47,338 bases of DNA, taken from the NCBI GenBank assembly GCA_947041165.1, contig CAMRCY010000017.1, positions 1 through 47,338 of the forward strand. Reading direction: 5' to 3'. A program made the translations under genes and the position numbers. Below the pieces are notes generated by a model. It worked only from the letters and a program-made list of their open reading frames with translations, was not told the origin of the DNA and did not search any database. Shown here piece after piece: positions 1 through 46,270 of the stretch (positions within the stretch are counted from its first letter, which is position 1; each line of letters starts with the position of its first letter). The DNA is from an uncultured Deferribacteraceae bacterium. Lineage in GTDB: Bacteria; Chrysiogenota; Deferribacteres; Deferribacterales; Mucispirillaceae.

Positions 1-1039
1 GAGCTCTAGAAAATGTAGCTTCACTCACTGTTAATTCTTTGATAGCATCACTTATAATTGCTTTACTATATGTTTCATAATCAACTGCTGTATCATCATT
101 TATATCAGTTTTATCGTGACTTATATTAGCTTTATCAACTCCTTTGATATCTTCTTTTATTGGATTAATCAAATCTTTAGAAAACTCTTTCTCCCATTTA
201 TCTTTTAGATCATCTTTAGTTAAATCATGAGTTTTATTATCTCTACTTTGGAGTGTCGCTCTATCTTTCAGCTCTTCCTCTGATAGATCTTTATGAGTTT
301 CTTTGAGTGTTGTTAATGTCTCTTGAATTTCTACTGATCGTTTAGAGAATGCTTTAATTGCTTCTTCATCAACTCCTGATATTTCGAACTTGTTATCATA
401 GTTATCAACTTTATATCCTAAATTTTGGATGTTTAAAGCGAGTTCATTTTGATAGATGTTATTGATTAATTTTTGATTTCTAAAGATTAGTTCATTTGAT
501 ATAGCTTTAAAATCTTTGTTTTTAGTTTGAGTAATATTTAGGATTACAGAATGAGTATGTAGTTGAGGATCATTACTTCTACTTGTGGAATGAACGAATG
601 TTCCAACAACCATATTATCTGATTTCACTTTGAATAATGATTTAGTTTTGCGATCGAACTCTCTATATTGGATTAAATTTTTCTCAACATAATCTAGAGC
701 TTTTATAACTGCTTGATTGTGTGCATCGATTACGGCTTCATCACCTAGATGCAGAGCTACTATTGATACTGATTTAGGAGCAGAGAACACGAGATCAATG
801 CCTGCACGATGTTCTTTATTCACTCCTGCTTGTACGAGTATTTTATCGGACTTAGTATCATGCCCTGCTAGTAGTGCTTTAAAATCTTCGGCTTTAACAG
901 CCCCTGATAAGTTGAGTTCTTGAGCGAGCGATCCTTGCCATAGAGAGTTCTCACTTTCATCATTAGGAGAGGTTATCGGATCACTCTCATAGTAGTATGA
1001 ACTTGCTTGCGACGCTGACACTAACCTTGCTAAAGCCAT
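1..1039 (-). CDS. MobF/TrwC-type conjugative relaxase, N-terminal part (cut by window edge)
   Basis: Read on the minus strand from ATG at 1039, an open frame of 346 codons runs off the left edge. A tyrosine cluster at residues 15-17 (SSYYYESDP) sits where MobF enzymes carry their nicking tyrosines. RAGIDLVFSAPKSVSI at 78-93 is the typical relaxase core. FVHSTSRSNDPQLHTH follows, with H150, H161 and H163 as the metal-binding histidines. MobF relaxases nick the transferred strand at oriT and stay covalently bound to it; many carry a helicase in the C-terminal half, which is out of view here. The start is supported by TTTTGGAGA eight bases upstream. With the primase-like and integrase genes to its right it marks an integrative, transferable element. 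The residues listed are seen; the role is by family. Confidence 0.9.
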   Translation of the reverse strand, partial: MALARLVSASQASSYYYESDPITSPNDESENSLWQGSLAQELNLSGAVKAEDFKALLAGHDTKSDKILVQAGVNKEHRAGIDLVFSAPKSVSIVALHLGDEAVIDAHNQAVIKALDYVEKNLIQYREFDRKTKSLFKVKSDNMVVGTFVHSTSRSNDPQLHTHSVILNITQTKNKDFKAISNELIFRNQKLINNIYQNELALNIQNLGYKVDNYDNKFEISGVDEEAIKAFSKRSVEIQETLTTLKETHKDLSEEELKDRATLQSRDNKTHDLTKDDLKDKWEKEFSKDLINPIKEDIKGVDKANISHDKTDINDDTAVDYETYSKAIISDAIKELTVSEATFSRA

Positions 1040-1111
1040 ATATGTTTCTCCAAAATAAAAAATTGTAAAAAGTCAGAACTAACTTTTTCAAGCTGTACTA
1101 ACTAATTATAT

Positions 1112-1134
1112 TAATTACTACGAGAGGTGTAACA
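1112..1134. repeat. 23-bp element, inverted partner of 6056-6078
   Basis: The reverse complement of 1112-1134 equals 6056-6078 with a single C/T difference (TGTTACACCTCT then YGTAGTAATTA). One copy lies upstream of the relaxase, the other just upstream of the Toprim gene, and each is oriented the same way relative to the gene it precedes. It contains TTAC and GTAA ten bases apart. A shared operator of the element backbone is the simplest reading. Confidence 0.75.
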
Positions 1135-1194
1135 TTTTGGTATTTATAGGATTTTATGAATATATATGATTGTTTGATTGGATGTGAAAAGACT

Positions 1195-1225
1195 TTGAAG
1201 GATTAATGAAATATAGTAATATAAT
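1195..1225 (+). promoter_or_regulatory. Putative promoter for the pentapeptide-like cargo gene
   Basis: TTGAAG (1195-1200) and TATAAT (1220-1225) are separated by 19 bases. TATAAT recurs at the equivalent place, 2991-2996, in the copy ahead of the reverse transcriptase. The long spacer and the AT-rich context make this tentative. Confidence 0.45.
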
Positions 1226-1297
1226 AATATGTAGGTTTTATAGTATGAGGTTCTATCTCTTCAGATATTAATCTTACAACTACTGGAGGAGAAAAAC

Positions 1298-2713: not shown

Positions 2714-2746
2714 ATTTTATATTTTTGATATTTACATACAATTTTC

Positions 2747-2779
2747 AAAGGATAGATTAACCTCTATCCTTTTTATTTT
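2747..2779 (+). terminator. Intrinsic terminator after the pentapeptide-like gene
   Basis: A perfect 10-bp stem (AAAGGATAGA at 2747-2756, TCTATCCTTT at 2763-2772) with a 6-base loop runs into a T-rich tail. It isolates this gene from the reverse transcriptase. Confidence 0.85.
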
Positions 2780-2804
2780 GGAGAAAAATGAATCTTAATA
2801 TCAT

Positions 2805-3022
2805 CTTTTCGTTACTCCAATATGAAAAATTGTAAAAAGTCAGAACTAACTTTTTGAAAAAACTAACCTAATTACATTAATGATTATATAAGATAACTAT
2901 TAAAGGAGTCTCTTAAATAACCACTTATCAATATATATGGGTATCACAAAGTGATACAAAAGGCTTTAAACTGATAATATTATATAGTAATATAATTATA
3001 TGTAAGTTCTATACTATAAGGT
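2805..3022. repeat. Control region, copy B, upstream of the reverse transcriptase
   Basis: This is the diverged partner of 1045-1255, including 31 identical bases at 2825-2855. It carries TATAAT at 2991-2996 and, unlike copy A, a perfect palindrome at 2941-2957. Read on the minus strand its left end keeps a GGAG site followed by ATG and only about 14 codons, as expected if a relaxase leader had been duplicated and then decayed. The 2714-3046 gap holds this region plus the terminator and no other gene. A small RNA partner of the reverse transcriptase could lie here, but no structure proves it. Confidence 0.8.
2941..2957. promoter_or_regulatory. Palindromic operator candidate GTATCAC-AAA-GTGATAC
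   Basis: A perfect 7-bp dyad around a 3-base centre lies about 35 bases upstream of TATAAT, in the leader of the reverse transcriptase. The equivalent place in copy A (about 1168-1185) lacks it, so it is specific to this cargo gene. It has no T-tail and is short, so a protein-binding site is likelier than a terminator. Confidence 0.55.
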
Positions 3023-3046: not shown

Positions 3047-6037
3047 TTGAATAACAATTTGTTTTCTAATCTTAAGAATACTCTAAAAATGGTGGAAGGA
3101 GCATATAAAAAACTTAAATCTGATTTTCACTATGACAGGAGGATGTTATTTGTAAAGAAGAGAATAGCTGTTTTAGAAAGTGATCGAGAATTATTTAGTA
3201 CAACGCTTACTAAAATAGCTGAAAATCTAACAAACCAAAACTCTGAATATTTTAAAGATTTGATATCGCAAATAGATTTTAAAATACTGCCTAAAAAATT
3301 TATATCAATAAGTCCTCAGAAAACAACGCCAAAATATAATAAAAAATCAAAGGTAATACAAAGCTCTACTGACAACAAACAAACAATATCTAAAGTTATT
3401 TTTTTTATAGATATGCCAATTGAATTATTTATCATTGATTATTTATGGACTATTTTACTCGGGAAAATAGCTAATGAAACAGCAAATACTTTTAAATATG
3501 CAGCAGCCCCAAAACTAAGAAGATCTCTTTATAATTCAAAAAGCGACCTTTACCATGGAACTGATTTTGAGTCCAATAGAGCTTTTGAACATTACTTTCC
3601 ATTATATAAACAATGGCGAAAAGGTGCTTTTGATAAAATAAAAAAAGCAGAAACAGATACTCTTTTAATATGCTTAGATTTGAAAAACTTTTATAATTCT
3701 GTTGAATTCAATTTCACAATGATAGATAATTATCTTGACAATGATAATCGACTACCTTCAGTTGCCTTTTTAAAAAAAATTATTGAAAAAATCTACTTAA
3801 AATACACAAAAACAATTTCAAAACAAAAAAGGTGGGTTATGGACAATAAAAACACTTGTCTTTTCCCTATTGGAATACGTAGTGCAAATTTATTAAGGGA
3901 ATTATACTTACAAGACTTTGACAAAATGATTGTTAATAAGTTACAACCAATACACTATAGTCGTTATGTGGATGATATCTTTATTTTAGTTAGCTCAAAA
4001 GAAGAGGATGTACAATATAACGAATATATTATCCACAAATATCTAGTTAGCACAAGTATTCTAGAAAAAAAGAACAATAAAACGTTGTGCTTTACAGACT
4101 ACAATAATCTTCATATTCAAGAAGAAAAGATAAACTGTATTTTATTTCTTAAGAATAAAAAACATGACTTTCTAGCTATTTATGAGAGTGTAATTAAAAA
4201 AAATAGCAGTGAGTGGAACTTATTACCAGATATAGATATATTAAATTCTTCATTTACGACAAATGCCTATAACATTAAAAATCTTGAACTTAGTGACAAA
4301 ATAAGAGATTTAGGTTTTTTACAGAATGATAATGCTAGGGCAATGAAATTCATGTCAGAATTGCGACAACTAATAAAAAACATCACTATTAATTCTAAGG
4401 AGATGAGTAAATACTTAGACCAAATTGAAGAATTTTACTCTGGAAGTAAAAGTGTAGAATTTTCTCATAGCTGGAGCTCAATATTTGAGTTATTCCTATT
4501 ATGCAAAGATAAAGACAGAGCAAATAAATTCTACAGAAGTATTAAGAACGAAATCAATAATTTAAGTTTTCTACAACTAGAAACTGGCGAAGTGTTAAAT
4601 AGAAATAAAAAATATTTATTAAAACACCTAGAAAACGATCTGTATGACAATTTAAATACTACTATGGCTCTGGTTGCTTCGCTTAACTATAACTTTACTA
4701 CAAAAGATGAAATTATACCATTAGCAAAACAAATTAGAGAAAGCAATCTTTTAAATCATAACATGGTGTCGTATCCTCTGCTTAATTATTCTTCTGTAAA
4801 CAATATCATATTAACTGAGACAAATATCTCTACTCTCTTTAAAAATGAAAAAGAAAATAAAATTTTTGAATTAGATAAATTCAAACTAAACTGGTCTCCT
4901 CGTTTTATACATCCCATTGAATTTTGTATGGCTAATTTTATATATTTTTTTCATGATAATAAAAAAATCTTCTCAAACCCTAACTCAATGTTAAAAAAAC
5001 ATAATACCTATAATCACTTAAATAACTTTGATAACAACTTAATTTCTTTCGGTGAGATGGGTACAAAAAATGAAGTAGTGCATCGCTCCATTTACATAAA
5101 AAACAGTTCTGGTAGTGACCCCAAAATTGCATTAGTAAATACAAAGATAGAGGAGAAAGATGTTCTTGAAAATCTGTACTCACCGGAAAAGTATTTAACA
5201 CATGAAAATAAATTAAAATTATTTAAGATATTAAACACTGCAAAAACAGAAAAGGTAGGTATTTTGGTTTTTCCAGAATTTTACTTTCCGATTGCATGGC
5301 TTATGGATATCGCTAAGTTTGCAATAAAAAATAATATTACTATTATTACAGGACTCCAATATTTAACATTCAAAAAAAGAGCCTTTAACTATGTTTGTAC
5401 AGTACACCCTGCGCGAAGTGGCAAATCATTTATGACTGGTTTTTTACAATTTAGAGAAAAGAATTTCTATGCTCCAAAAGAAAAAATTGAGTTAAGTAAA
5501 AATAAATATAGTTGTCTTGATTCAAAAATACCAATTTATGATATTATTGAAAATTGGAGATATCGATATAGTATAATATTATGTTATGAATTTGTTGATA
5601 TTACATCTAGAGCCAGCATGAAGTCAAGAATTGATATTTTATTTGTACCTCAATTAAATAGAGATACAAATTATTTTTCTGCGATAGTTGAATCATCATC
5701 ACGTGACCTATATTGTTTTGTCGTACAGGCAAATACTTCGTCGTATGGAGACTCTAGAATCACAGCACCATATCGCTCTATAGATAAAAACATCGTACAA
5801 ATTAAAGGTGGAGATACTGATGTTGTTATGATATCCCAGTTAGAAATGAATGACCTTATAACTAGCCGTGACGACTATACAGATAAGTTAAAGAGGAATA
5901 TTACAGCCTGTATTGAGTGTACAAAGACGGATATAGATAAGTGTAAGGGATGTGGCTTTGCTATAGAGAATGGAAAACTCAAAGGAACTCCACCAAATCT
6001 TGTTCTTAGTCCATTTACCATTGAACGAATAAATTGA
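3047..6037 (+). CDS. Reverse transcriptase-nitrilase fusion, candidate UG/DRT anti-phage protein
   Basis: The 996-residue protein has a reverse transcriptase domain with CLDLKNFYNSV (motif A, D211), FPIGIRSANLLRELYLQDFD, and the catalytic box YSRYVDDIFIL (Y307-D310). The C-terminal third is a carbon-nitrogen hydrolase: LVFPEFYFP (E744), FREKNFYAP (K805) and IILCYEFVD (C846) give the Glu-Lys-Cys triad of nitrilases. A CxxC pair-of-pairs follows (C955, C958, C966, C969). Known UG-class reverse transcriptases joined to nitrilase include defence-associated DRT type 1 (UG1) and UG5; such proteins block phage infection. The subgroup cannot be assigned here. The start is TTG at 3047 behind AAAGGCAGG. 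No group II intron or retron features are seen. Placement as cargo of an integrative element supports defence, but its activity is inferred. Confidence 0.88.
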   Translation: MNNNLFSNLKNTLKMVEGAYKKLKSDFHYDRRMLFVKKRIAVLESDRELFSTTLTKIAENLTNQNSEYFKDLISQIDFKILPKKFISISPQKTTPKYNKKSKVIQSSTDNKQTISKVIFFIDMPIELFIIDYLWTILLGKIANETANTFKYAAAPKLRRSLYNSKSDLYHGTDFESNRAFEHYFPLYKQWRKGAFDKIKKAETDTLLICLDLKNFYNSVEFNFTMIDNYLDNDNRLPSVAFLKKIIEKIYLKYTKTISKQKRWVMDNKNTCLFPIGIRSANLLRELYLQDFDKMIVNKLQPIHYSRYVDDIFILVSSKEEDVQYNEYIIHKYLVSTSILEKKNNKTLCFTDYNNLHIQEEKINCILFLKNKKHDFLAIYESVIKKNSSEWNLLPDIDILNSSFTTNAYNIKNLELSDKIRDLGFLQNDNARAMKFMSELRQLIKNITINSKEMSKYLDQIEEFYSGSKSVEFSHSWSSIFELFLLCKDKDRANKFYRSIKNEINNLSFLQLETGEVLNRNKKYLLKHLENDLYDNLNTTMALVASLNYNFTTKDEIIPLAKQIRESNLLNHNMVSYPLLNYSSVNNIILTETNISTLFKNEKENKIFELDKFKLNWSPRFIHPIEFCMANFIYFFHDNKKIFSNPNSMLKKHNTYNHLNNFDNNLISFGEMGTKNEVVHRSIYIKNSSGSDPKIALVNTKIEEKDVLENLYSPEKYLTHENKLKLFKILNTAKTEKVGILVFPEFYFPIAWLMDIAKFAIKNNITIITGLQYLTFKKRAFNYVCTVHPARSGKSFMTGFLQFREKNFYAPKEKIELSKNKYSCLDSKIPIYDIIENWRYRYSIILCYEFVDITSRASMKSRIDILFVPQLNRDTNYFSAIVESSSRDLYCFVVQANTSSYGDSRITAPYRSIDKNIVQIKGGDTDVVMISQLEMNDLITSRDDYTDKLKRNITACIECTKTDIDKCKGCGFAIENGKLKGTPPNLVLSPFTIERIN

Positions 6038-6055
6038 CAAGTGATTAAACATATT

Positions 6056-6078
6056 TGTTACACCTCTTGTAGTAATTA
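6056..6078. repeat. 23-bp element, inverted partner of 1112-1134
   Basis: This copy matches the reverse complement of 1112-1134 at 22 of 23 positions and ends about 38 bases before the Toprim gene start. With its partner it brackets both cargo genes, as expected for boundaries of a cargo slot or a regulon site of the backbone. Confidence 0.75.
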
Positions 6079-6115
6079 TTAGAAGCAATTAATAATTATT
6101 ATGGGAGGTTTTATT

Positions 6116-7423
6116 ATGTCAGAATTTAAAGCTATGGCAGATATTAAATTAGACGCAAAATACGAACAGAGAGAACAAGCATCTGAACTAGGTGCTAGAT
6201 GGAACAAAGAGCATAAAACGTGGTACGCTCCAAAAGGTAGCAATCTATCCGATTTCAAAGATTTTATGAAAGAAGATAAAATCACAATCATGAACTCAAC
6301 CTACTTAAACGTTCCATTCAGTGAGAAAAATCAAGCTAAAGAACTTGGTGCTTATTTTGATGGCGAACGTAAAGAATGGTACGCACCAGCATTCAACAAT
6401 ATCAAAGACTATCCTTCAAAATGGTTTGAAGATAAAGAAAAATCACTCGCAATCGATACCGATAAAGTTACCTTCAAAGAGTTTGCAACCAACAAAGGTT
6501 TAATCATCGATGACTTAGTTGCTGATGGTGCATTTCATCGTGTATCAGTAGTCGGTGGTAAACCGAACGCTAAAGATGGATCATACGTTTGTTACGATGA
6601 TTCAAACGGTAAAGCAGGTTTTATCCAAAATTGGAAGACTGGTGAAAAAGCAACTTACGGTGAAATGTCAGGAGAGAAATATACAGCATTCAAAGCCGAT
6701 ATCGATACGCATAAACAAGAACGTAAAATCGAACAACAAGAACTATACGACAAGAAAGCTAAAGTTGCACAAGGTTTAATATCATCTAAATTTAAAGTCG
6801 CTGGTAACGATCATCCATACCTACAGAACAAAGATGTTAGAGCTCATCAAAAAGTTAAAGTTGATGACAAAGGTGCATTAATTATTCCTCTAGTCAACTC
6901 TGAAGGTAAAATTCGTACATTCCAACGCATCGATAATGAAGGTAACAAAAGCTTTATATCTGGTGGAGAAAAGAAAGGGAATTTTTACTCATTCAACGAT
7001 CGTATCAAAGATCAAGTCATTATAGCTGAAGGTTACTCAACTGCAGCAACCGTATATGAGTCAACTAAAATACCCACAGTTGCAGCGATGGATGCAGGTA
7101 ATCTTCCAGCTGTTGCTGAAAATCTTCGTGCTAAATACGGCGATGATCTGAAGATAACTATAGCTGCAGATAACGATCATAATCGTGCTGATAATCCAGG
7201 AGTAACATTTGCACAAAAAGCAGCCGATCTTGTTGGTGGAAAAGTTGTTGTACCAAACTTCACCCAAGAAGAGAAAGATAAAGGCTTAACCGATTTTAAC
7301 GATATGGCAAAATCTAGAGGTAAAGAAGCTGTGAAAGACGAAATGGTTAAGCAAAACAAAGATCTAGATAACGTAATACAAAATGTATCTAAATCTAAAG
7401 AAGAGAATGAAATTGAAAAATAA
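6116..7423 (+). CDS. DUF5710 x2 - Toprim primase-like protein of the mobile element
   Basis: Two DUF5710-like modules open the protein: EQASELGARWNKEHKTWYAP and KNQAKELGAYFDGERKEWYAP, within residues 1-110. A primase-helicase-like middle follows (HPYLQNKDV at about 248, then IPLVNSEGKIRTFQRI). A Toprim fold comes next: VIIAEGYSTAATVYES with the conserved glutamate, then TIAADNDHN as the metal-binding acidic motif. Proteins of this make are carried by conjugative plasmids and integrative elements and are thought to prime the transferred strand. An upstream in-frame ATG at 6101 overlaps GGGAGG; that ribosome site sits seven bases ahead of ATG 6116, so 6116 is preferred (435 residues). The relaxase and integrase share the element. 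Confidence 0.8.
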   Translation: MSEFKAMADIKLDAKYEQREQASELGARWNKEHKTWYAPKGSNLSDFKDFMKEDKITIMNSTYLNVPFSEKNQAKELGAYFDGERKEWYAPAFNNIKDYPSKWFEDKEKSLAIDTDKVTFKEFATNKGLIIDDLVADGAFHRVSVVGGKPNAKDGSYVCYDDSNGKAGFIQNWKTGEKATYGEMSGEKYTAFKADIDTHKQERKIEQQELYDKKAKVAQGLISSKFKVAGNDHPYLQNKDVRAHQKVKVDDKGALIIPLVNSEGKIRTFQRIDNEGNKSFISGGEKKGNFYSFNDRIKDQVIIAEGYSTAATVYESTKIPTVAAMDAGNLPAVAENLRAKYGDDLKITIAADNDHNRADNPGVTFAQKAADLVGGKVVVPNFTQEEKDKGLTDFNDMAKSRGKEAVKDEMVKQNKDLDNVIQNVSKSKEENEIEK

Positions 7424-7501
7424 CTAACAGCCAATACACAATAAGCCGATAATATCAATATATAGATAACAAAATATTACATCTATATATTGGGGGTTGC
7501 A

Positions 7502-8350
7502 GTGACATTAACGGATTATATTGATACATTTTATAAAGATTATTTAGCATTAAAACGTACTAAAGCACAAAATCTTAAACATGATATAGGGACATTAAAT
7601 ACTATTAAATCTTATCCTATATCAAATATGGAGTTAGATAAAATCAAGAAGATCGATGGAGAGAAATTTCTTTTAAAAATTCAGAAAGATAGAGATGTAT
7701 CCTACACTACAGTGAATAGATACAGATCAACATTAGTTGCGATAATGAACAATGCTATCGATGAGGAGGTTATAACTGTCAACACGCTTAGAGGTATTAG
7801 AAAACATAAAGAAACTCCAAGGGCTGAAGTATTAACAAACGAGGAAATACAACGTTTACTACAAAGCTGTATGCTAAGTGCAAATAAAGAGTTATATACA
7901 GTTGTGGCTCTTGCCTTATATACTGGGATGAGATATTCAGAGATAGTTTTTATGATGAAATCACGACTGGGTAAAAATATTTATACCCTTACAGCTCATG
8001 AAACTAAATCTAGAAAAGGGAGAGATGTTGCTCTACCTACTCTTACTGTAGATATTTTAAATGAGTTTATGGATGCAAATCATACCGATACTGATCGAGT
8101 TTTTACTTTTACTCATTTTAAAAATCCATTTCATAAAGCTAGGTTAGATGCTGGTTTAGAACATATAAGATTTCATGATTTAAGACGTACATTTGCGACT
8201 CATTTAGCACAGGCTAAAACACCTGCATCGATCATACAAAATCAACTAGGACACTGTTCTCTAAAAATGACAGAGGCATATTTATCAGTGAGTTTAGAAA
8301 AAAGAGTTGAAGAGATTAAAAGCTGTGTTATAAATAATACAGCAAGATAA
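7502..8350 (+). CDS. Tyrosine recombinase / integrase of the mobile element
   Basis: An N-terminal SAM-like DNA-binding part (about residues 1-90) precedes the catalytic domain. Seen are LYTGMRYSEI with the first arginine, FHDLRRTFATHL (HxxR), LGHCSL and the nucleophile region MTEAYLSVS. The protein has about 282 residues, normal for a compact integrase. GTG at 7502 lies five bases after GGGGG and is the likely start; TTG at 7490 in the same frame is possible but would bury that ribosome site. The gene points at the tRNA-Asn fragment 70 bases downstream, the classic arrangement of integrase beside its attachment site. Confidence 0.92.
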   Translation: MTLTDYIDTFYKDYLALKRTKAQNLKHDIGTLNTIKSYPISNMELDKIKKIDGEKFLLKIQKDRDVSYTTVNRYRSTLVAIMNNAIDEEVITVNTLRGIRKHKETPRAEVLTNEEIQRLLQSCMLSANKELYTVVALALYTGMRYSEIVFMMKSRLGKNIYTLTAHETKSRKGRDVALPTLTVDILNEFMDANHTDTDRVFTFTHFKNPFHKARLDAGLEHIRFHDLRRTFATHLAQAKTPASIIQNQLGHCSLKMTEAYLSVSLEKRVEEIKSCVINNTAR

Positions 8351-8419: not shown

Positions 8420-8465
8420 ATGGCTGTTAATCATTGGGTCGGCGGTTCGAACCCGTCCCGGGGAG
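8420..8465 (+). other. Attachment site: 3' part of tRNA-Asn(GTT)
   Basis: From 8420 the sequence is the 3' 46 bases of a tRNA: most of the anticodon arm with GTT at 8426-8428 in loop CTGTTAA, the T arm GGCGG-TTCGAAC-CCGTC, and acceptor strand CCGGGGA plus discriminator G at 8465. Left of 8420 pairing breaks (C8419 faces T8435) and no D arm or 5' acceptor exists. This is a direct-repeat remnant from integration into the 3' end of a tRNA-Asn gene. The intact tRNA should lie at the other element end, left of the window. Confidence 0.9.
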
Positions 8466-8733
8466 CTTAGACGCCCTTACAAATTATCTTTACTATCCTA
8501 ACAAAAACAACCAATAAAATCTATTTTAAACCTAATTGCAAAAAACTATAACACAATATAAATTTATTTTCACTCACCTTTTTCCACCATAAAAAAACTT
8601 GAAATCTTTACACTTAACATAACAACTATTAAATTAATCACATTAAAGCGTAAGTGATCTTCTGCGACCGATTTAGATATCTATATAAATTCGATACAAA
8701 CACTCTTAGAATAAAATCAAATCATTTAGCTGA

Positions 8734-8964
8734 CTTTTTATACATATTATAGTAATCTTTAATATACTCAATTCTAACGGTTGCAACAATCTTGCAGTTA
8801 TGTATTCTGAGGGACAAGGTGCAAATATTCTTTACGATAAATCACTCGGTTTATATAAGCAAACTTGTGATCTTGGAAAAGATATAGGATGTAAGAATTT
8901 CAAAATTCTTTACGATAAATTATGTATAACTGACCCTAAAAAATATTGTTCAAAGTATGAATAA
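8734..8964 (+). pseudogene. 3' remnant of a Sel1-repeat protein gene
   Basis: The frame ending at TAA 8962-8964 reads NGCNNLAVMYSEGQGANILYD, then KSLGLYKQTCDLGKDIGCKNF, which is a Sel1 repeat with the paired cysteines seen in the intact gene at 15344. Upstream the frame stops at 8731 and no start or earlier repeats exist. It lies 270 bases from the integration point, so the 5' part may have been lost in an insertion or deletion. The rest of 8466-9012 (8466-8733, 8965-9012) is AT-rich with nothing recognisable. Confidence 0.75.
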
Positions 8965-9012
8965 TTTTATACGTCTTTTTTATAAAATTATTATATTTAA
9001 CAAAAGGTAGCC

Positions 9013-10194
9013 ATGAATAAAAATAATATATTTGTTGAACTAACCCACTCTACTGATGCTGAAATTACAGGCAACGCAACCGACTGTACTCAAGTAGAAC
9101 TCTATACGGATAACGCTAAATATTTCTATAACTTAAAAGAACAGAAAGAGTTTATCAAGCATATAGAAAATATTAACAATCTTGATAATATTCCGTATAC
9201 ATATAAATTAACTGAACTTATATTCTACACAGTTAAAAAGAGAATTAAGCAGACCGATATCGTTAATTTTAATATTTTTAATGATAATTATACTTTCTCA
9301 AACAGTTTACTTATATCAAAAAAAGTCTTAGATATTTTCAATCAATTTACATTACCTGAACACTCAATAACACCATGCAGAATAATTTCTATTAAAGACA
9401 AGTCAGAGTGGGGAGAGTATTATTTACTTAAATTTAATACAGTTTCAGACTCGTTAATAAACTACTCTAAAAGTGCATTTTGGAGATTTGTGATGGATGG
9501 GCAATATCCCCAAATTAAAAACCGTGAAGAGTATAACACTATCTGTTTATTTCACGCATGGTGCACCATCTGTTTATCAGAAACCCTCACCTACGATATA
9601 ATATCTTTAAAAACAAGTATATTTATTAATGAAAAATTATATAATGCGTTAAAGCTAGCAAATATAATCGGTTTATCTGCTAGTAAAAGCGAGCTGTTTT
9701 TTGAAGAAAATGAAGATACTAAATTTAATTTCACATACCCTTATATATTTTCAATTGATGATTATAAAGAAGCTAATACCGTTCAAGTATCGCTCGGTGT
9801 TGGATATAATAATAGTAGCAAAAAGTTTTCGTTCGGTGATCAATCTAGGTTTCCTAATAACAGCATGTTTGAAATTTATGATGCAGGGATAGGTATAGAT
9901 CGCATCGGCTATATAGATAACAAATTAGCGTATATAGATATTTTTGAGTCTGATGATTATAAAACAATACTCTCAAAATTTGAGATGGAACTGTTTATTG
10001 ATACTACCTTTTTATATCTACAAAAAAATTATAAATCTATTCAAACGAAAAATAAAGTACATATATATTTTCCTGAACTCTGCATGATATTTAGTTGTTT
10101 TTCAAAAGTAAAAGATAGTCGTTGTAAAAGAGTTACTATATTTGATAAGAGTGTTACAACTTTTATAGAAACTAAAAAATTGAAATTAATTTAA
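9013..10194 (+). CDS. Unrecognised 393-residue protein
   Basis: I do not recognise this protein with confidence. It has no signal peptide or membrane helix and is rich in aromatic, Asn, Asp and Ile residues. A central segment, SNSLLISKKVLDIFNQFTLP followed by GEYYLLKFNTVSDSLINYSKS, loosely resembles Imm11/DUF1629 immunity-like proteins, in which a defined Leu/Tyr pattern precedes a conserved D-x-S; that resemblance is weak. AAAAGGTAGCC precedes the ATG as ribosome site. The next ORF starts 17 bases later and is broken by a stop, so the two may once have been a pair. It lies in the accessory stretch next to the integration site. Confidence 0.7.
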   Translation: MNKNNIFVELTHSTDAEITGNATDCTQVELYTDNAKYFYNLKEQKEFIKHIENINNLDNIPYTYKLTELIFYTVKKRIKQTDIVNFNIFNDNYTFSNSLLISKKVLDIFNQFTLPEHSITPCRIISIKDKSEWGEYYLLKFNTVSDSLINYSKSAFWRFVMDGQYPQIKNREEYNTICLFHAWCTICLSETLTYDIISLKTSIFINEKLYNALKLANIIGLSASKSELFFEENEDTKFNFTYPYIFSIDDYKEANTVQVSLGVGYNNSSKKFSFGDQSRFPNNSMFEIYDAGIGIDRIGYIDNKLAYIDIFESDDYKTILSKFEMELFIDTTFLYLQKNYKSIQTKNKVHIYFPELCMIFSCFSKVKDSRCKRVTIFDKSVTTFIETKKLKLI

Positions 10195-10211
10195 ATATAA
10201 TAAGGGTAGAA

Positions 10212-10544
10212 ATGACATCTCTTGCGATCTTCTTTTTAAAAGATCTATCATATATACCGTCTGATGTAGTTGACACAATTTGTAAGTTTGAAGATAAGTG
10301 TGAAATGGATTAACACGATGATATTGTTGATGAAATTTATTCAGAACATAACATCAATGGTTACGCTACATACTGTCAAAGTGGAATAAGTATACATGAT
10401 GATATGGATGAATTTGTTATGCAAATATCATCAGATGATAAAGCTAAATTTAATATTGTAGATTCTGGACTTTTCTTTCTCTACTATAATAAAGACAAAA
10501 CCGATGGAAAGTATATTGTGATTTCTATTGATTATTACGAGTAG
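10212..10544 (+). pseudogene. Unknown 110-codon gene interrupted by one in-frame TAA
   Basis: From ATG 10212 the frame reads 33 codons (MTSLAIFFLKDLSYIPSDVV...), meets TAA at 10311-10313, then stays open for 76 more codons to TAG at 10542. The continuation is acidic and composed like a real protein (DEFVMQISSDDKAKFNIVD...). No start with a ribosome site follows the stop. AAGGG precedes the first ATG. A single nonsense change is the simplest cause; sequencing error or readthrough cannot be excluded. The product is not recognised. Confidence 0.6.
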
Positions 10545-10570
10545 ATACTTTATAAATATATCTACTTTAC
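10541..10570 (+). terminator. Weak terminator-like hairpin after the broken gene
   Basis: GTAGATA (10541-10547) and TATCTAC (10559-10565) form a 7-bp stem overlapping the stop codon, followed by only three T. It is weak as an intrinsic terminator. Confidence 0.3.
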
Positions 10571-10658
10571 TTGATATAAAAAACAAAAATCATGTAACAA
10601 CAATTTAATCGTCACATGACAAAGCATATAAATAAATGTCAAAATTATTGGAGAGATA

Positions 10659-11222
10659 ATGGATACGAAATTAATGAAAGAATCGATAGATACAAATGTA
10701 TACCATATTCCAACAGGTGTAACAGTTCCTCTACATGGACACCAGGCACATGATGAAGTGTTTTACTGTATAGAAGGCTCAGGCTACGGCTTACTACAGG
10801 GATCTGAAGTAAAGCTAACAGTTGGAGATGTGTTTGTTGCACACGCTGGAGATCTGCACGGGCTTAGATCGGATGATAATTTACATGTTGTAGCAGTTAT
10901 GATTCCTGTTGATAGAGTGATTTGTAAATGTAAAAACGTTAGTTACGGCGATATTAGAAACGCTATGATGAATGGTGCTAGAACGATTGATGAGATAAAA
11001 GATATTACGAACACAGGCACGGGATGTGGTAGTTGTATTGCAGATATAGAGGAGATATTAATTATGGTTTGTGGATGTAAAGGTGTATCAAAAGATACAG
11101 TATTAAAAGCTATTAAAGGTGGAGCAGATACAGTTGAAAAAGTTTCTGAAGTAACAGAAGCTGGAACTGGATGTGGAAAATGTAAAGTAGAAGTTCAAGC
11201 TCTTATCGATACAAATAAATAG
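10659..11222 (+). CDS. Cupin fused to two BFD-type [2Fe-2S] domains
   Basis: Residues 1-85 are a cupin: H26-x-H28-x4-E33-x6-G40 (HGHQAHDEVFYCIEG) and G56...H62-x-G64-x2-H67 give the metal-binding pattern, with His in place of the usual proline of motif 2. Two bacterioferritin-associated-ferredoxin domains follow with identical spacing: C89-x-C91-x31-C123-x2-C126 and C138-x-C140-x31-C172-x2-C175. BFD domains bind a [2Fe-2S] cluster and pass electrons or sense iron and redox state. No signal peptide, so cytoplasmic. TTGGAGAGATA precedes the ATG. The domains are clear; the function of the fusion is not known to me. A redox or iron-sensing role, or electron donor to a cupin enzyme, is inference. 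Confidence 0.85.
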   Translation: MDTKLMKESIDTNVYHIPTGVTVPLHGHQAHDEVFYCIEGSGYGLLQGSEVKLTVGDVFVAHAGDLHGLRSDDNLHVVAVMIPVDRVICKCKNVSYGDIRNAMMNGARTIDEIKDITNTGTGCGSCIADIEEILIMVCGCKGVSKDTVLKAIKGGADTVEKVSEVTEAGTGCGKCKVEVQALIDTNK

Positions 11223-11866
11223 TTTTCATAAATAGTTAGAGGGTTTTAATCAAACCTGTTTCAAGCATAGAAAAGTTAAAACTCTCTAATTACCTTACAA
11301 TCTAAAAAATCATATGAAGGCAATTTTAAATATTAATAACAATACAAGAAATTTGATTTTCAAAAATTAAAAATCATGATCTTACATAATCCAACTTACA
11401 AAGAACAATTAAACTATCTTAAACAAAACTATCAAACAAATAATATTACAGTTATGATTTCGATAGTTTATAAATAAGTTTTAAGTAAAGGGTAGAAATT
11501 TTTAGTCCTCCATTTTTTATTAAAAGAGTAGTGACTATTTTTTTTAATATTAACACCCTAAAACCTTTGTACACCCACCCACAATTAATTCCTAATATAC
11601 AAAAAAACTGTATACACATATATTTGAATATGCTACGCTGTTTTCTTGTATTTACTATATATACACATATAGCGATATACATTTATAGCTTCATCATTAA
11701 GTGTATATATTAAATGTTTGATATCAATAATGTTTCTTCTTTAATATAGCTCAATCTTTTAAAGTATTTATTTAATGTTTAATATTTCAGGTTTTATATC
11801 GAAGGTATAAAACTTTGTATTGTAGCATATACAAAATAAAATATTTTAATTTATTGGGGAGATGTT
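11223..11866. other. Gene-free stretch with one long imperfect inverted repeat
   Basis: An inverted repeat of about 14 bp (11235-11249 with 11275-11290, one mismatch) follows the cupin-BFD gene; it lacks a T-tail, so it may be a weak terminator or RNA-stability hairpin. The remainder is very AT-rich. Short overlapping frames on both strands at 11452-11713 have no ribosome sites and low-complexity products. I see nothing else. Confidence 0.5.
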
Positions 11867-12424
11867 ATGAAGTTTTTAAGATTTTATTTATTTGTTTTTG
11901 TCACTGTTCTTGCATTCAACAGTGTAGTTTTAGCACAGAGTAGCGGTGAGGATTTTGAAGGACAAGTTGAAGATCTTGTAACAAACAAGAGCACTAGTTT
12001 TTATTACTTACTAGGTAATATAGGGTATAATGGTTTTATCTCAGAAGGTATCAGTGCTTCAGGTTTAGATATATCTATACTTGGAGGTTTACAACAAAGT
12101 AGATTTTTTGCGATGGATGTAGCAGTTGGTTATTCTAACTTAGGTTTTTCACGTATTAATCTAAAATATGCATTATTATTTCAAACAAGTATCAAGTTAA
12201 GTCCATCATGGAGTATTTTACCAAAAGTTGGTTTAGGAGCATCTGGTTCTTCTATAATGGTTGACGAAGGTGGAAGTTTGTTTGATGCAGGTGTTTATGG
12301 TACATTAGGCGTGAGATCAACTTATAAAAACATTATTGTTGGGTTATCATATGAACACACAATAGCAAGCCGTTTCTCATTCAATGATTTTAGAATATTA
12401 GTCGAAGCTGGCATAAGGTTCTAA
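11867..12424 (+). CDS. Small outer-membrane beta-barrel-like protein
   Basis: A signal peptide with cleavage after VVLAQ is evident (MKFLRFYLFVFVTVLAFNSV). The mature part alternates polar and hydrophobic residues with glycines and aromatics (YYLLGNIGYNGF, VGYSNLGFSRINLKYALLF, IVGLSYEHTIASRFSF) and ends in aromatic F (EAGIRF), as outer-membrane barrels do. The size, 185 residues, suits an eight-stranded barrel, but no family is recognised. ATTGGGGAGATGTT is a strong ribosome site. A clear terminator follows, so it is a single-gene unit. Confidence 0.75.
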   Translation: MKFLRFYLFVFVTVLAFNSVVLAQSSGEDFEGQVEDLVTNKSTSFYYLLGNIGYNGFISEGISASGLDISILGGLQQSRFFAMDVAVGYSNLGFSRINLKYALLFQTSIKLSPSWSILPKVGLGASGSSIMVDEGGSLFDAGVYGTLGVRSTYKNIIVGLSYEHTIASRFSFNDFRILVEAGIRF

Positions 12425-12514
12425 ATATTAGTAGAGCAATAATATATTGAATTCATTTAAAAGCTTCAACATTTAATTAATTTTAATTAAATGAAAATTT
12501 AATAATAATATAAG

Positions 12515-12549
12515 TAGAGGGTAATTAATTTTATCCTCTATTTTTTTTT
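12515..12549 (+). terminator. Intrinsic terminator after the beta-barrel gene
   Basis: TAGAGG (12515-12520) pairs with CCTCTA (12535-12540) and is followed by nine T (12541-12549). Confidence 0.75.
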
Positions 12550-12689
12550 GAGTGAGAATGAGAGATAGGTATGTATAACTTAAAAATAAAACTGCTATCC
12601 TTCTTGCTCCAATAGATGTAAGTGTTTATGACTAAACAACTATATTTAAATTAATATAGTTATATAGTTATATAGTTGATGTTGTGATT

Positions 12690-12704
12690 AAAGACATTGT
12701 CTTT
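12690..12704. promoter_or_regulatory. Palindrome AAAGACA-T-TGTCTTT upstream of the AAA_13 gene
   Basis: A perfect 7-bp dyad with one central base lies about 60 bases before the chosen start of the ATPase gene. Just upstream ATATAGTT is repeated in tandem (12651-12676). There is no T-tail, so an operator is more likely than a terminator. It may hold the gene silent until a repressor is released. Confidence 0.5.
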
Positions 12705-12762
12705 GTCTTAGAATATGTTAACATATACTGTTTCTATAAAAATTCAATATGGATGTATAAGC

Positions 12763-15099
12763 ATGGAAGAAAAACAAGAACAACTAGACTTTACTATTAA
12801 AACAGATTTTTTAGATATAAAGCCAATAAATTTAGATATAGAATTTATTAAAAAAGTAATACACAATGAGAAGGATAAAAACAAGGAAACTATATTACCT
12901 CAGCATTATCTCATCTATGGTAACAATGGAGTAGGGAAGACTACTATTTCTGAAATATTAAGAAAAAAAGATGAATGTAATTATCAATTAAATTATCTAG
13001 ACTTAGGAAAATATGAGGGATTGAATTTCGAGGTTTATAATAGACATTTTGTAGCTGAAAACGTCCATGACATGAACAAACTAAACAATACGGGAAAACT
13101 TATAAATATAGTTATCGGAAAAAACAATATAAATAAATTGGACAAATTGAATGCAGAGAGCGAAAAAATAAAAGATATTCATTCTAAAATAAAAACCATA
13201 GATAGTGTGATCGCTACTGATAAAAGCACATTTTCTAAAAATGAAAACTTCTTAAAAGAAGAACTGGGAGATAATTTCACAGAACTTTTAGCTAAATCAA
13301 ATGATGAGCTTGACCTACAAATAAAAGAAATGACTAAGCAACTACCTAAACAAGAAAATGATATTCAAGAGAGCCTAAAACTATTAAAAGAATTAGTGCT
13401 AACTAAAGAAATACTTGAACTCAATTCAAACGAGTTACTTAATGATGTTCCACAAGCCTTGACACAAAAAAGAGAAGATGAAATATTTAAATTTTGCAAA
13501 TACATCTCTACTAAAAAACAATGGTATGAGATTGGGATAGAAAGCTTACAAAACACAACTCATCAATGTCCTTTTTGTCATCAGTTAATAAATGACGATA
13601 CTACCAAAAAAATTATAAGTGACTATAAAATATCATTATCTAACATAGAATCAAAAACATTACAATTAAAGATTAAATCAGCAATAAGCACAATATCAAA
13701 CTTACAGCAAGAATATTCATCAACGATAACTGAAAACAATAATAACCATCTTGAACATTTATCCAATCTAAATAATTTAGAAAGTGAAAGTATGTTAAAG
13801 TCAATTTCAGCCTTATCACAGTTATTTACAAAGAAACTCGAGAACCTATCTATTCCACTTAACGATAATCACAGTAATATTACAGTACAAGTGAATAATT
13901 ATAATGCAGTAATAAAAAAGAACAACATACTTATTAATGCATACAATGATGAACAAAAAAGAAACAAAACACTAAGAGATACAGCGCTAGAAAATAAAAA
14001 CAAAAATGATGCATTAATAGAGAAATATCAGAAAACTAAATTAAAAAAAAGCGAATACACTAAAAAACATATAGAACTACAGAACTTATTACAAACTATT
14101 AAAAGTAACCAATCTCAATATGATAGCCTGGTAGCTGAAAAAGATAAGTGTAAATCATTTTTTTCAAAACTCACAAAAGAGTATGAAGAGTCTGCATCAG
14201 AAGAGGTACTTAAGTACACTGATAGTATCAACAACATACTTGAAAAATTTAATTTCAAGTTAGAAATAGTCGCTACCATTAAAGTGAAAAATGATGATAG
14301 AAGTAAACAAACTATAGGGGATATAGAGTCTCAATACACGGTTAACAGAAAGGATACTAAATTTATAATTAACAATTCTCAATTAAGGTACTCCCTGAGT
14401 GAAGGAGAAATGAATGCAATTGGCTTATCCTTTTTCTTAGCACAGCTTCCTAATGATATGTCAAAGACTGTACTAGTTTTTGATGATCCTGTAACGAGCT
14501 TTGATACTCTACGTATAGCTAGCACATCTAAGTACATTCTAGATATTAACTCAAAAGATACTTTCATTCTCACCCATCATACCTCTTTTGCAAATAAAGT
14601 TTTCTTTGACTGTAAAGGTAATTTATTTTGTTTTGAATTAGAGAAACTAATTAAAACACAAATTAAAGCATCAAGAAGTTTTCTTGCTAAAGATGAGATT
14701 TTTTCACATTATGAAAACATCATAATCGCTAAGAGCAAAACAGAAATAAATAATTGGAAACACGCAACACGCGAATTGGTCGAACTAATTTTAACAAACG
14801 CATATTTATCAACAATTAATGATAGTTCAGACAATTTAACATCTGCTTATGAAAAAATAAGATTTGCTAAAAAAGAACATGGAAAAAATGTAAGTTTAGT
14901 AAGAAGTTTCGACAATAAAAACAAAGCTAATTTAAAAAAAACTATGCAACATTTTTTAACTAGTTATGATATTTTATCTAATGAAACGCATTCTTCAAAT
15001 TCTGATAAAGTTAAAATGGGAGATGAAGAGCTAAAAGCTGAACTTGAAAAAATATTTACAAGAATATCTAATTACCTATCTTACAACTTAAGTACCTAG
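12763..15099 (+). CDS. Zinc-hook AAA_13 ATPase, RloC/PrrC-like candidate
   Basis: A Walker A box lies at residues 53-61 (GNNGVGKTT). A long coiled coil holds a zinc-hook CPFC at 269-272 (HQCPFCHQLI). The second half of the ATPase has signature LSEGE, Walker B VLVFDDPVTSFD and a histidine switch FILTHH. This split-ATPase layout is AAA_13, shared by the anticodon nucleases PrrC and RloC. The C-terminal domain has R670-x3-E674 (TRELVELI) and H743 (SNETHSSN), an Arg/Glu/His set like the nuclease triad of those enzymes, although spacing to the His differs from PrrC. Start 12763 (MEEKQEQ) is preferred over ATG 12715, which lacks a ribosome site and sits against a palindrome. A tRNA-cleaving defence role is inferred; no restriction-modification genes adjoin it. 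Confidence 0.8.
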   Translation: MEEKQEQLDFTIKTDFLDIKPINLDIEFIKKVIHNEKDKNKETILPQHYLIYGNNGVGKTTISEILRKKDECNYQLNYLDLGKYEGLNFEVYNRHFVAENVHDMNKLNNTGKLINIVIGKNNINKLDKLNAESEKIKDIHSKIKTIDSVIATDKSTFSKNENFLKEELGDNFTELLAKSNDELDLQIKEMTKQLPKQENDIQESLKLLKELVLTKEILELNSNELLNDVPQALTQKREDEIFKFCKYISTKKQWYEIGIESLQNTTHQCPFCHQLINDDTTKKIISDYKISLSNIESKTLQLKIKSAISTISNLQQEYSSTITENNNNHLEHLSNLNNLESESMLKSISALSQLFTKKLENLSIPLNDNHSNITVQVNNYNAVIKKNNILINAYNDEQKRNKTLRDTALENKNKNDALIEKYQKTKLKKSEYTKKHIELQNLLQTIKSNQSQYDSLVAEKDKCKSFFSKLTKEYEESASEEVLKYTDSINNILEKFNFKLEIVATIKVKNDDRSKQTIGDIESQYTVNRKDTKFIINNSQLRYSLSEGEMNAIGLSFFLAQLPNDMSKTVLVFDDPVTSFDTLRIASTSKYILDINSKDTFILTHHTSFANKVFFDCKGNLFCFELEKLIKTQIKASRSFLAKDEIFSHYENIIIAKSKTEINNWKHATRELVELILTNAYLSTINDSSDNLTSAYEKIRFAKKEHGKNVSLVRSFDNKNKANLKKTMQHFLTSYDILSNETHSSNSDKVKMGDEELKAELEKIFTRISNYLSYNLST

Positions 15100-15343
15100 C
15101 CTTAATATTTTCCATTTTCTACACAGCACCATTAATTTATTGAATTATCTAACTCTAAACTATATAATACATCGTGCTGAAAAATATACATAATTATCTA
15201 TCGCACTTTTTTATGGTTTTGATATCTATGATACATATAGATTATAATTAAAAAAATCTGTCTTATAACATAAGCTTGAAAACAGTACACCAATAATCAC
15301 TGTGTAACACAGAAATAAACAGAATATTATCAAGGAGTCTCTT

Positions 15344-16006
15344 GTGAAAAAAACTCTCGCAATCGTTGTGCTTTTAGCCGTAGCACTTATCGTTATTTTT
15401 AACATCACTGTATCTGAAAGTTATGTTGAAGAAATCCAAAACCTATCAGCTGAAGAAAAATTTAATCAAAATACTAAACAGTGTGATGAAAATAATTACG
15501 AAGCCTGCTATCAATTAGCTTTACAATATAATCTAGGCGAATTTGTGCAGATAGATGAAGGCAAAGCATTGACATATTATGAGATCGCTTGCAACGATGG
15601 AAGTGTTACATTAGCTTGTATCAACGCTGGAGCAATGTATCTAAACGGCACAAATACAACTATTCAAAATATGAATGTAGCCTTAGATTATTTTACTAAA
15701 AGTTGTACCGATAATACAGATAATGGAATAGGATGTGCAAACCTTGGACTAATGTATTATCACGGTAGAGGCACTGGAATAAATTATGAAAAAGCAGCCG
15801 AACTACTTAAAAAATCTTGCGATCTTGGTATATCTCTAGGGTGTCATAATCTTGCAATATTATACAGTAACGGGAAAGGCGTTGAAAAGGATTTAGGTAA
15901 ATCATTAGAGCTTGTAGAAAAAGCCTGTTCTATGGGTGATGAAACAGCATGCCTATCTGCTCAATCATTAAAAGAACAATTACAGATAAAACAAACTGCA
16001 CCGTAA
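15344..16006 (+). CDS. Cysteine-rich Sel1-repeat protein (HcpA-like)
   Basis: The N-terminus is a membrane anchor or uncleaved signal (KKTLAIVVLLAVALIVIF). About four Sel1 repeats follow (LALQYNLG..., GAMYLNG, LGLMYYHGRGTGINYEKAAE, LAILYSNGKGVEKDLGKSLE), with paired cysteines in each (CDENNYEAC, CNDGSVTLAC, CDLGISLGC, CSMGDETAC). That pattern matches the disulfide-linked Helicobacter cysteine-rich proteins, so an extracytoplasmic location is likely. GTG at 15344 follows AAGGAGTCTCTT. The fragment at 8734-8964 is a paralogue remnant. Exact partner or role is unknown. Confidence 0.85.
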   Translation: MKKTLAIVVLLAVALIVIFNITVSESYVEEIQNLSAEEKFNQNTKQCDENNYEACYQLALQYNLGEFVQIDEGKALTYYEIACNDGSVTLACINAGAMYLNGTNTTIQNMNVALDYFTKSCTDNTDNGIGCANLGLMYYHGRGTGINYEKAAELLKKSCDLGISLGCHNLAILYSNGKGVEKDLGKSLELVEKACSMGDETACLSAQSLKEQLQIKQTAP

Positions 16007-16030
16007 TATTATCAATTGAAATACAAAAAA

Positions 16031-16822: not shown

Positions 16823-17034
16823 AGGTGTTAAGCTCCTCGTAAAATCCTTAAAACTACTATATCATGTTTTAAAATTTTTCCATATTTTATAGTATACGTT
16901 CACAATAATCATAGCATGAGTTATAAATTTATTGAATAATCTCATCTAAAAGAATAGATTAAACTATTTCTCTTGCAATGATCTGAGTTCATATTATAGT
17001 AAAGGTCTATCTAATAATTCGGAGTATGTTTTTG

Positions 17035-19317: not shown

Positions 19318-19815
19318 GATATCTAATAGTTAATCTAATTAACATCTATCATATTTTAACGCTAATCAATACGCAATATCTAATCTGATTAACAGCTATC
19401 ATATTTTCACACATCAATCAACACACAGTATCTAACCTAATTAATAGCTATCATATTTTAACGCTAATCAATACGCAATATCTAATCTAATTAACAGCTA
19501 TCATATTTTAACATCAATCAACACATAATATCTAATCTGATTAACAGCTATCATATTTTAACGCTAATCAATACGCAATATCTAATCTAATTAACAGCGA
19601 TTATATTTTAACGCTAATCAACACACAGTATCTAACCTAATTAACAGCTATTATATTTTAACGCTAATCAACACATAATATCTAATCTAATTAACAGCTA
19701 TCATATTTTAACGCTAATCAATACATAATATCTAATCTGATTAACAGCTATCATATTTTCACACATAATCAATATATAATATCTAATCTAATTAATAGCG
19801 ATTATACGTTCATAT
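19318..19815. repeat. Tandem array of about ten 50-bp units
   Basis: TCATATTT-type anchors recur at 19349, 19399, 19451, 19501, 19551, 19601, 19651, 19701, 19751 and about 19801, a period of 50 (one 52). Each unit reads roughly TATCTAATCTRATTAACAGC, then TATCATATTTTAACGCTAAT, then CAATACGCAA. Units are diverged by a few bases and there are no unique spacers, so this is a minisatellite and not CRISPR. It lies between convergent genes. Confidence 0.95.
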
Positions 19816-46186: not shown

Positions 46187-46270
46187 TATTTTTTATACTT
46201 AAAAACTTTATTAGATGAAATTTTGCACATTTTAAAGTTGATATAAATTAACTTAGAAGATTTTATCTAG

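What the first reader, a model, noticed from the sequence alone, without database searches (positions are those of the whole stretch)
3047..6037. Reverse transcriptase fused to a nitrilase as cargo of an integrative element
The RT catalytic box YVDD (307-310) and a complete nitrilase Glu744-Lys805-Cys846 triad are both intact in one 996-residue protein. Nitrilase-bearing UG-class RTs (DRT type 1/UG1, and UG5) are known anti-phage proteins. Here it sits in a mobile element with its own duplicated control region. What is not known: its UG subgroup, any RNA partner, and what the nitrilase does.
Basis: partly seen in the sequence, partly recalled or inferred. Interest (0 to 1): 0.85.

Follow-up and report, generated by a model that had tools for sequence, protein, structure and literature searches.

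The report
Phage-defence reverse transcriptase on conjugative element
A jumping conjugative DNA element in a gut-type bacterium carries a one-protein system, a reverse transcriptase joined to a nitrilase enzyme, of a known family thought to kill phage-infected cells; the same slot in sister elements holds other defence genes, so this is a new, slightly unusual member of a known kind.

Summary
In detail: 3047-6037 encodes an intact 996-aa reverse transcriptase-nitrilase. Nothing places it with retrons or group II introns. Its nearest relatives are Lachnospiraceae proteins (~40% identity); the full profile was met in none of 50 related genomes, which suggests horizontal acquisition.

[quoted passage not shown] Supporting this, Ser388 is invariant in all intact relatives and sits like DRT1's priming Ser402. 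The C-terminal lid motif K-x-x-P, essential in DRT1, is conserved at K979. No RNA partner was found. This protein and its nearest full-length relatives add a four-cysteine knuckle before the lid.

The host is an ICE integrated at tRNA-Asn (attR 8421-8472). The "duplicated control region" is not the RT's own: it is a cassette spacer (terminator plus palindromic operator). In sister copies the same slot holds restriction-modification plus a KAP ATPase, or an ABC-ATPase set. The co-carried pentapeptide protein is probably not an RT partner.

New member of a known kind; Ser388, the knuckle and the cassette slot are testable additions. Antiphage activity is untested.

The parts
3047..6037 (+). UG5-nitrilase (class 3 defence-associated reverse transcriptase), 996 aa, TTG start
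   Evidence: PADLOC PDLC03780 E=3e-180; 83-row alignment and tree; AF2 pTM 0.88
3620..4174 (+). Reverse transcriptase palm/fingers (residues 192-376)
   Evidence: Pfam RVT_1 34.7 bits; D211, D309, D310 invariant
3965..3976 (+). RT catalytic box YVDD (residues 307-310)
   Evidence: invariant or nearly so in 83 relatives
4208..4210 (+). Ser388, candidate DNA-priming serine (motif SSExxxLP) in a flexible loop
   Evidence: Ser in 82 of 83 rows, the exception being a frameshifted gene; 78 residues after the second Asp of YVDD, versus 77 for DRT1 Ser402; loop pLDDT 59
5123..5857 (+). Nitrilase (C-N hydrolase) domain, about residues 693-937
   Evidence: PADLOC RTasNitrilase; Foldseek to 2w1v and amidases
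5276..5584 (+). Nitrilase catalytic tetrad Glu744, Lys805, Glu812, Cys846
   Evidence: E744, K805, E812 100%, C846 99% conserved
5909..5953 (+). Four-cysteine knuckle C955-x2-C958-x7-C966-x2-C969
   Evidence: among 83 UG5 rows found only in this protein, L015, L016 and L017
5981..6001 (+). C-terminal lid motif K979-x-x-P982-P-x-L
   Evidence: Lys979 in 74 of 77 rows; DRT1 equivalent K1219TQPAGF, K1219 essential (PMC13275509)
1..1039 (-). MOBF (TrwC-type) relaxase, N-terminal 346 aa, cut by contig end
   Evidence: 89% identical to G037 relaxase with Pfam TrwC 240 bits
1298..2713 (+). Pentapeptide-repeat protein with C-terminal hydrophobic stretches, first cargo cassette
   Evidence: Pfam Pentapeptide_3; relatives in G036 and G037 without an RT
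2736..2872 (+). Cassette spacer: terminator, second hairpin and palindromic operator, upstream of the RT gene
   Evidence: 92-97% identical copies before other cargo genes in G037:C39 and G000:C48; RNA fold z=-4.06
2748..2776 (+). Intrinsic terminator of the pentapeptide cassette (AAGGATAGA...TCTATCCTTTTT)
   Evidence: sequence; the same hairpin ends cargo in G036, G037 and C48
2834..2855 (.). Palindromic operator AAAAAGTCAGAACTAACTTTTT, copy 2
   Evidence: exact core at 9 sites in the genome (plus 3 sites with 1-2 mismatches), only on contigs C4, C17, C26, C48; expected 0.002 by base composition
1067..1088 (.). Palindromic operator, copy 1, beside the relaxase gene
1112..1133 (+). Motif B at left edge of cargo slot (TAATTACTACGAGAGGTGTAAC)
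6057..6078 (-). Motif B, inverted copy, at right edge of cargo slot, upstream of the Toprim gene
   Evidence: right core boundary shared with G036, G037 and C48
2958..3023 (+). Leader repeat (79% identical to 1187-1252)
6101..7423 (+). DUF5710-Toprim protein, element core gene
   Evidence: Pfam; 94% identical in G037
7490..8350 (+). Tyrosine integrase of the element
   Evidence: Pfam Phage_integrase 90 bits; 92% identical in G037
8421..8472 (+). attR: 3' part of tRNA-Asn, right end of the ICE
   Evidence: 96% over 52 bp to the tRNA-Asn gene at G000:C26:26890-26963

Best explanation
The protein is a UG5-nitrilase, that is a class 3 defence-associated reverse transcriptase, carried as a defence cassette on an integrative and conjugative element. 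Mechanism, inferred from DRT1: (1) without phage, the RT adds a short untemplated DNA chain to its own Ser388; (2) these DNA adducts make the nitrilase domains assemble, while the C-terminal lid around Lys979 keeps the nitrilase shut; (3) phage replication enzymes disturb the DNA-held assembly; (4) the opened nitrilase (Glu744-Lys805-Glu812-Cys846) attacks an essential small molecule and the infected cell dies or stops growing before phage release. In this branch a four-cysteine, probably zinc-binding, knuckle lies between the last nitrilase helix and the lid and probably positions the lid. Shown here: family, intact catalytic residues, conservation of Ser388 and Lys979, the knuckle, the ICE and its variable cargo slot. 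Inferred: all steps of activity and the anti-phage role.
For: Family: PDLC03780 600 bits, against 76 for Drt1a. All RT and nitrilase catalytic residues are conserved. The profile of 52 relatives finds DRT1 (PDB 9YFD) at E=3e-31 across both domains. Ser388 is the only serine at least 90% conserved in the whole protein (98.8%), in a flexible loop after a helix, spaced like DRT1 Ser402. The lid motif K-x-x-P is shared with DRT1. PMC13275509 shows that purified DRT1, DRT5S and DRT5L make protein-linked DNA without a template, and that DRT1 needs RT, nitrilase, Ser402 and Lys1219 for defence. Context: the same ICE slot holds an RM-like pair (C5-methylase plus GHKL/Shedu-C nuclease) and a KAP NTPase in G037, and an ABC-ATPase set in G000:C48. 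Clade relatives lie beside type I restriction genes (L016, L019, L021, L041), and L016 also beside AbiD and an NB-ARC/TPR NTPase.
Against: No activity was tested. The sequence-only profile alignment does not itself place Ser388 on Ser402 (gap placement is ambiguous), and PMC13275509 states that Ser402 is not conserved in other class 3 DRTs. The RT carries unusual residues at usually conserved places (N285E, S280A, G305S, Y303H). The naming DRT5S/L = UG5 is my inference. The neighbourhood evidence has no matched control set.
Confidence: 0.72

Rival explanations
1. It needs a templating noncoding RNA from the repeated upstream region, like class 2 DRTs (DRT2, DRT9) or retrons; the repeat would be the RNA gene.
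For: The upstream spacer 2740-2872 folds better than shuffles (z=-4.06) and is strongly conserved between elements.
Against: The same spacer precedes methylase, KAP-ATPase and ABC-ATPase cargo that have no RT, so it belongs to the element. Its folding includes an ordinary terminator. No upstream similarity between this gene and its nearest relatives; Rfam finds only tRNAs. Class 3 DRTs make DNA without template RNA (PMC13275509).
Confidence: 0.06
2. The pentapeptide-repeat membrane protein is a second component, acting like the transmembrane Drt1b next to some DRT1 genes.
For: Adjacent, same strand, same leader repeat; about 18% of drt1 genes neighbour drt1b (PMC13275509).
Against: Separate cassette with its own terminator; present in G036 and G037 elements without an RT; no relative of it beside any of 80 other UG5 loci.
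Confidence: 0.1
3. The gene protects the element itself, for example against incoming rival plasmids or as an addiction system, rather than against phage.
For: It lies between conjugation genes, next to operators shared with relaxase and transfer operons; the RT gene has lost the terminator that separates cargo from the core in three sister copies.
Against: Cargo in the same slot of sister elements consists of known or candidate anti-phage types; UG5 relatives are spread over many phyla; DRT1 shows phage-triggered abortive infection (PMC13275509).
Confidence: 0.1
4. A catalytically degenerate or decaying copy without function.
For: Unusual substitutions in conserved RT positions such as N285E and G305S; single copy, absent from sister genomes.
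Against: 996-codon intact frame; all catalytic residues, Ser388 and the lid kept; relatives L015/L016 also change N285 (to D) in otherwise intact proteins.
Confidence: 0.08

Closest known systems
UG5-nitrilase RTs (PADLOC RT_UG5-nitrilase PDLC03780 / PDLC02995; class 3 UG/Abi)
   Same: Domain order, length, catalytic residues; 600 and 311 bits
   Different: Only 17-41% identical to fetched members; own small clade with L015, L016, L017, L029; four-cysteine knuckle before the lid; deviant RT motif around 280-305
DRT1 (UG1 RT-nitrilase, PDB 9YFD, PMC13275509)
   Same: RT plus helical region plus nitrilase in one chain; Ser in a disordered loop 77-78 residues after YVDD; lid motif K-x-x-P; profile match E=3e-31
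   Different: About 230 residues shorter; Drt1a model scores only 76 bits; no knuckle in DRT1
UG5_small plus separate RT-associated nitrilase (PADLOC PDLC03781 + PDLC03804)
   Same: Same two parts, RT part scores 239 bits; split pairs nest inside the fused family tree in at least two places
   Different: Here the two parts are one polypeptide
Defence cargo slots of ICEs and phage satellites (e.g. P2/P4 hotspots, PMC9122126)
   Same: Conserved mobile core with a variable defence slot
   Different: Here each cargo gene is a unit with shared operator leader and terminator; seen in three genomes of one genus

Membership tests
UG5-nitrilase / class 3 DRT | Best profile match to UG5-nitrilase over full length | tested here: met
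   PDLC03780 E=3e-180, residues 11-938
UG5-nitrilase / class 3 DRT | Intact RT active site (D211, YVDD) | tested here: met
UG5-nitrilase / class 3 DRT | Nitrilase fold with Glu-Lys-Glu-Cys tetrad in the same chain | tested here: met
UG5-nitrilase / class 3 DRT | Falls inside a UG5 phylogeny | tested here: met
   100% supported clade with L015, L016, L017, L029; no outgroup RTs such as retron or group II were in the tree, that point rests on profile scores
[quoted passage not shown]
   shown for DRT1, DRT5S, DRT5L in PMC13275509
UG5-nitrilase / class 3 DRT | Anti-phage activity | not testable with these tools
   no plaque data
DRT1 (UG1) | Best match to Drt1a profile | tested here: not met
   76 bits versus 600 for UG5-nitrilase
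DRT1 (UG1) | Priming serine equivalent to Ser402 | tested here: inconclusive
   Ser388 invariant and equally spaced, but profile alignment leaves the gap ambiguous
DRT1 (UG1) | C-terminal lid with essential Lys1219 in K-x-x-P-A | tested here: met
   K979-x-x-P982; Lys in 74 of 77 UG5 rows
Class 2 DRT or retron | Associated structured noncoding RNA | tested here: not met
   none conserved with relatives, none in Rfam; upstream repeat is an element spacer
Group II intron RT | Passes group II RT/maturase cut-off | tested here: not met
   19.7 bits against cut-off 300
Integrative and conjugative element | Integrase, tRNA attachment site duplication, relaxase | tested here: met
Integrative and conjugative element | Type IV secretion system and coupling protein on the same element | tested here: inconclusive
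   coupling protein beside the relaxase in sister G037; F-type TraC/U/H/G with the same operators on G000:C4, but contigs are not joined

The most novel reading that the evidence does not exclude
The element stores defence genes as exchangeable operator-gene-terminator units whose shared palindromic operator also lies beside the relaxase gene and at T4SS genes, so that defence cargo is switched with conjugation; and in this UG5 branch a four-cysteine knuckle beside the lid adds a metal- or redox-dependent lock to the nitrilase.
Probability: 0.25. Interest if true: 0.62.

Novelty: new member of a known kind. Interest (0 to 1): 0.45.

Why it matters
UG5 is the less studied nitrilase-bearing defence RT. 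The invariant Ser388 gives a direct test of whether DRT1's self-priming mechanism, whose serine was reported as not conserved outside DRT1, is in fact general to class 3. The shared lid motif predicts which single change should silence UG5. The cassette slot offers a way to find further defence genes in this bacterial group, and links defence cargo to a conjugation-type operator. The nitrilase substrate remains the open question.

Tried and rejected
An RNA partner from the repeated upstream region was rejected. The pentapeptide protein as obligatory partner was rejected by its absence from the other UG5 loci and its independent presence in sister elements. 'Duplicated control region of the RT' was replaced by 'cassette spacer'. 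Rare start codons looked like a trend in the clade but were not pursued: in L015 and L016 an ATG lies four bases further on. tblastn found no relatives in phage records, and one viral contig only distantly related (L095). Foldseek against PDB did not return DRT1, whose entry appears not to be in that copy; only the nitrilase domain matched strongly. Profile-profile alignment did not by itself settle Ser388 = Ser402. An integron-like reading of the spacers was considered; I saw no attC core-site pair by eye and did not test it further. The Mestre 2022 UG/Abi paper is not held.

Full report
Observation. The window is one whole contig (G000:C17) of a 2.14-Mb genome with about 30% G+C. The ORF 3047-6037 is intact (996 codons, TTG start). 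It carries an RT domain (RVT_1, residues 192-376) with YVDD at 307-310, and a C-terminal nitrilase whose Glu744, Lys805, Glu812 and Cys846 are conserved in practically all relatives. AlphaFold2 with 47 sequences gives pLDDT 85.6 and pTM 0.88. Foldseek places the C-terminal part on solved amidases and nitrilases.

Identity. PADLOC assigns RT_UG5-nitrilase at E=3e-180 (600 bits). The second UG5-nitrilase model gives 311 bits, UG5_small 239, and DRT1 only 76. Group II RT scores 19.7 bits against a cut-off of 300. A genome scan gave 80 relatives from Bacillota, Bacteroidota, Pseudomonadota, archaea and others. In an 83-row tree the protein forms a fully supported clade with Lachnospiraceae proteins L015, L016 and L029 and the unnamed bacterium L017, inside a wider, mostly Bacillota group. 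The full UG5-nitrilase profile was met nowhere else in 50 related genomes; weak hits there cover only RT regions. This fits horizontal acquisition. In at least two other branches the RT and nitrilase are separate neighbouring genes, so fusion is not fixed in the family.

Mechanism. The only solved relative covering both domains is DRT1 (9YFD), matched by the UG5 profile at E=3e-31 across RT and nitrilase. According to PMC13275509, DRT1 primes untemplated DNA on Ser402, which lies in a disordered stretch; DNA adducts drive tetramers and filaments; a swapped C-terminal lid (Lys1219, Ala1223 essential) covers the nitrilase site; and RT, nitrilase and Ser402 are all needed for abortive infection. 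That paper reports template-free protein-linked synthesis also for DRT5S and DRT5L, which I take, without proof, to be UG5 proteins.

Two links to that mechanism were found here. First, Ser388 (motif SSExxxLP) is the only serine at least 90% conserved in the whole UG5 alignment (98.8%; the sole exception is a frameshifted gene). It lies in a low-confidence loop after a helix, 78 residues after the second Asp of YVDD, against 77 for Ser402 in 9YFD and 67-76 in other DRT1 proteins; the spacing across UG5 is 75-194 with median 85. By hand it falls five residues after the helix isoleucine, as in the shorter DRT1 proteins. Automatic profile alignment leaves the gap ambiguous, and the paper says Ser402 is not conserved outside DRT1. 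I therefore hold Ser388 as the priming residue at about 0.6. Second, the DRT1 lid reads K1219-T-Q-P-A-G-F and the UG5 C terminus reads K-x-x-P-x-x-F: Lys979 here, Lys in 74 of 77 rows.

Special features. Between the last nitrilase helix and the lid, this protein and L015, L016 and L017 carry CxxC...CxxC (here C955, C958, C966, C969). No other row has it; L029 is cut by its contig end. A zinc knuckle that positions the lid is the natural reading, untested. The RT also departs from family consensus at S280A, N285E, Y303H and G305S. N285 is likewise changed to Asp in L015 and L016.

The element. Left of the cargo lies a MOBF relaxase (cut by the contig end); right of it lie a DUF5710-Toprim gene, a tyrosine integrase and attR, a 52-bp tRNA-Asn 3' end at 8421-8472. 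The matching tRNA-Asn gene is at G000:C26:26890-26963, followed by element genes including ArdC. In the sister genome G036 the flanks of both contigs lie on one contig around a shortened element. This fixes the right end at about 8472; everything after it is chromosome. F-type T4SS genes on C4 carry the same operators and probably form the middle of the element, but the contigs are not joined and the genome holds a second copy (C48).

The cargo slot. In G000:C48, whose sequence left of the slot is 95% identical to window 1-1231, the slot holds an ABC-type ATPase set (557, 87 and 184 aa; PDC-M68B and LmuB-like). In G037 it holds a longer pentapeptide protein, a C5-methylase with a GHKL/Shedu-C nuclease, and a KAP NTPase. 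The full spacer precedes the later cassettes at 92-97% identity; the left edge of the slot carries the palindrome portion only. The exact palindrome core occurs at nine genomic sites, plus three with one or two mismatches, all on contigs C4, C17, C26 and C48, against 0.002 expected by base composition. Cargo ends with TTTTATTTTGGA, joined to the core TTAAACATATTTG, in G036, G037 and C48. Here the RT gene has lost that terminator and abuts the core, so transcripts may run into the Toprim gene. C48 also shows a nearly deleted cassette.

Context. Relatives in the wider clade sit beside type I restriction genes (L016, L019, L021, L041); L016 also has AbiD and an NB-ARC/TPR NTPase. The pentapeptide gene is found beside none of the 80 other UG5 loci. 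I did not run a matched control for neighbourhood enrichment.

Verdict. A new member of a known kind, correctly spotted, with subgroup, likely priming residue, lid motif, branch-specific knuckle and a defence cassette slot added. The host looks like a Deferribacterota/Mucispirillaceae member from genome sizes and the family pattern, which is inference only.

Noticed in passing
window 12715-15099: AAA_13 ATPase of 794 aa matching PADLOC candidate PDC-S06 (E=1e-23), in the chromosomal part just past the element: possibly a second defence gene.
   Followed up: partly
L117 (G037:C39) 9242-17379: Sister element's slot with pentapeptide protein, C5-methylase plus GHKL ATPase with Shedu-like C terminus, and KAP NTPase; the second and third cassettes follow the same full spacer.
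   Followed up: yes
L129 (G000:C48) 8905-12360: Second copy of the element in the same genome with an ABC-ATPase cassette and an almost fully deleted cassette stub of about 45 bp.
   Followed up: partly
window 2740-2872: Spacer has a second conserved hairpin (TGGAG...CTCCA) after the terminator, spanning the unit boundary; its role (recombination site, attenuator) is unknown.
   Followed up: partly
window 6037-6101: RT gene lacks the terminator that separates cargo from the Toprim core gene in three other copies.
   Followed up: partly
window 19331-19806: 9.5 copies of a 50-bp tandem repeat in an intergenic stretch after a tRNA cluster (Lys, Glu, Val, Asp).
   Followed up: no
window 46268-46481 and 47152-47338: 56-bp and 33-bp tandem repeat arrays near the contig end; the latter may explain the assembly break.
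   Followed up: no
L137, L138, L140: DRT1 homologues on plasmids lie beside CRISPR type I-F, viperin and Qat defence genes.
   Followed up: no
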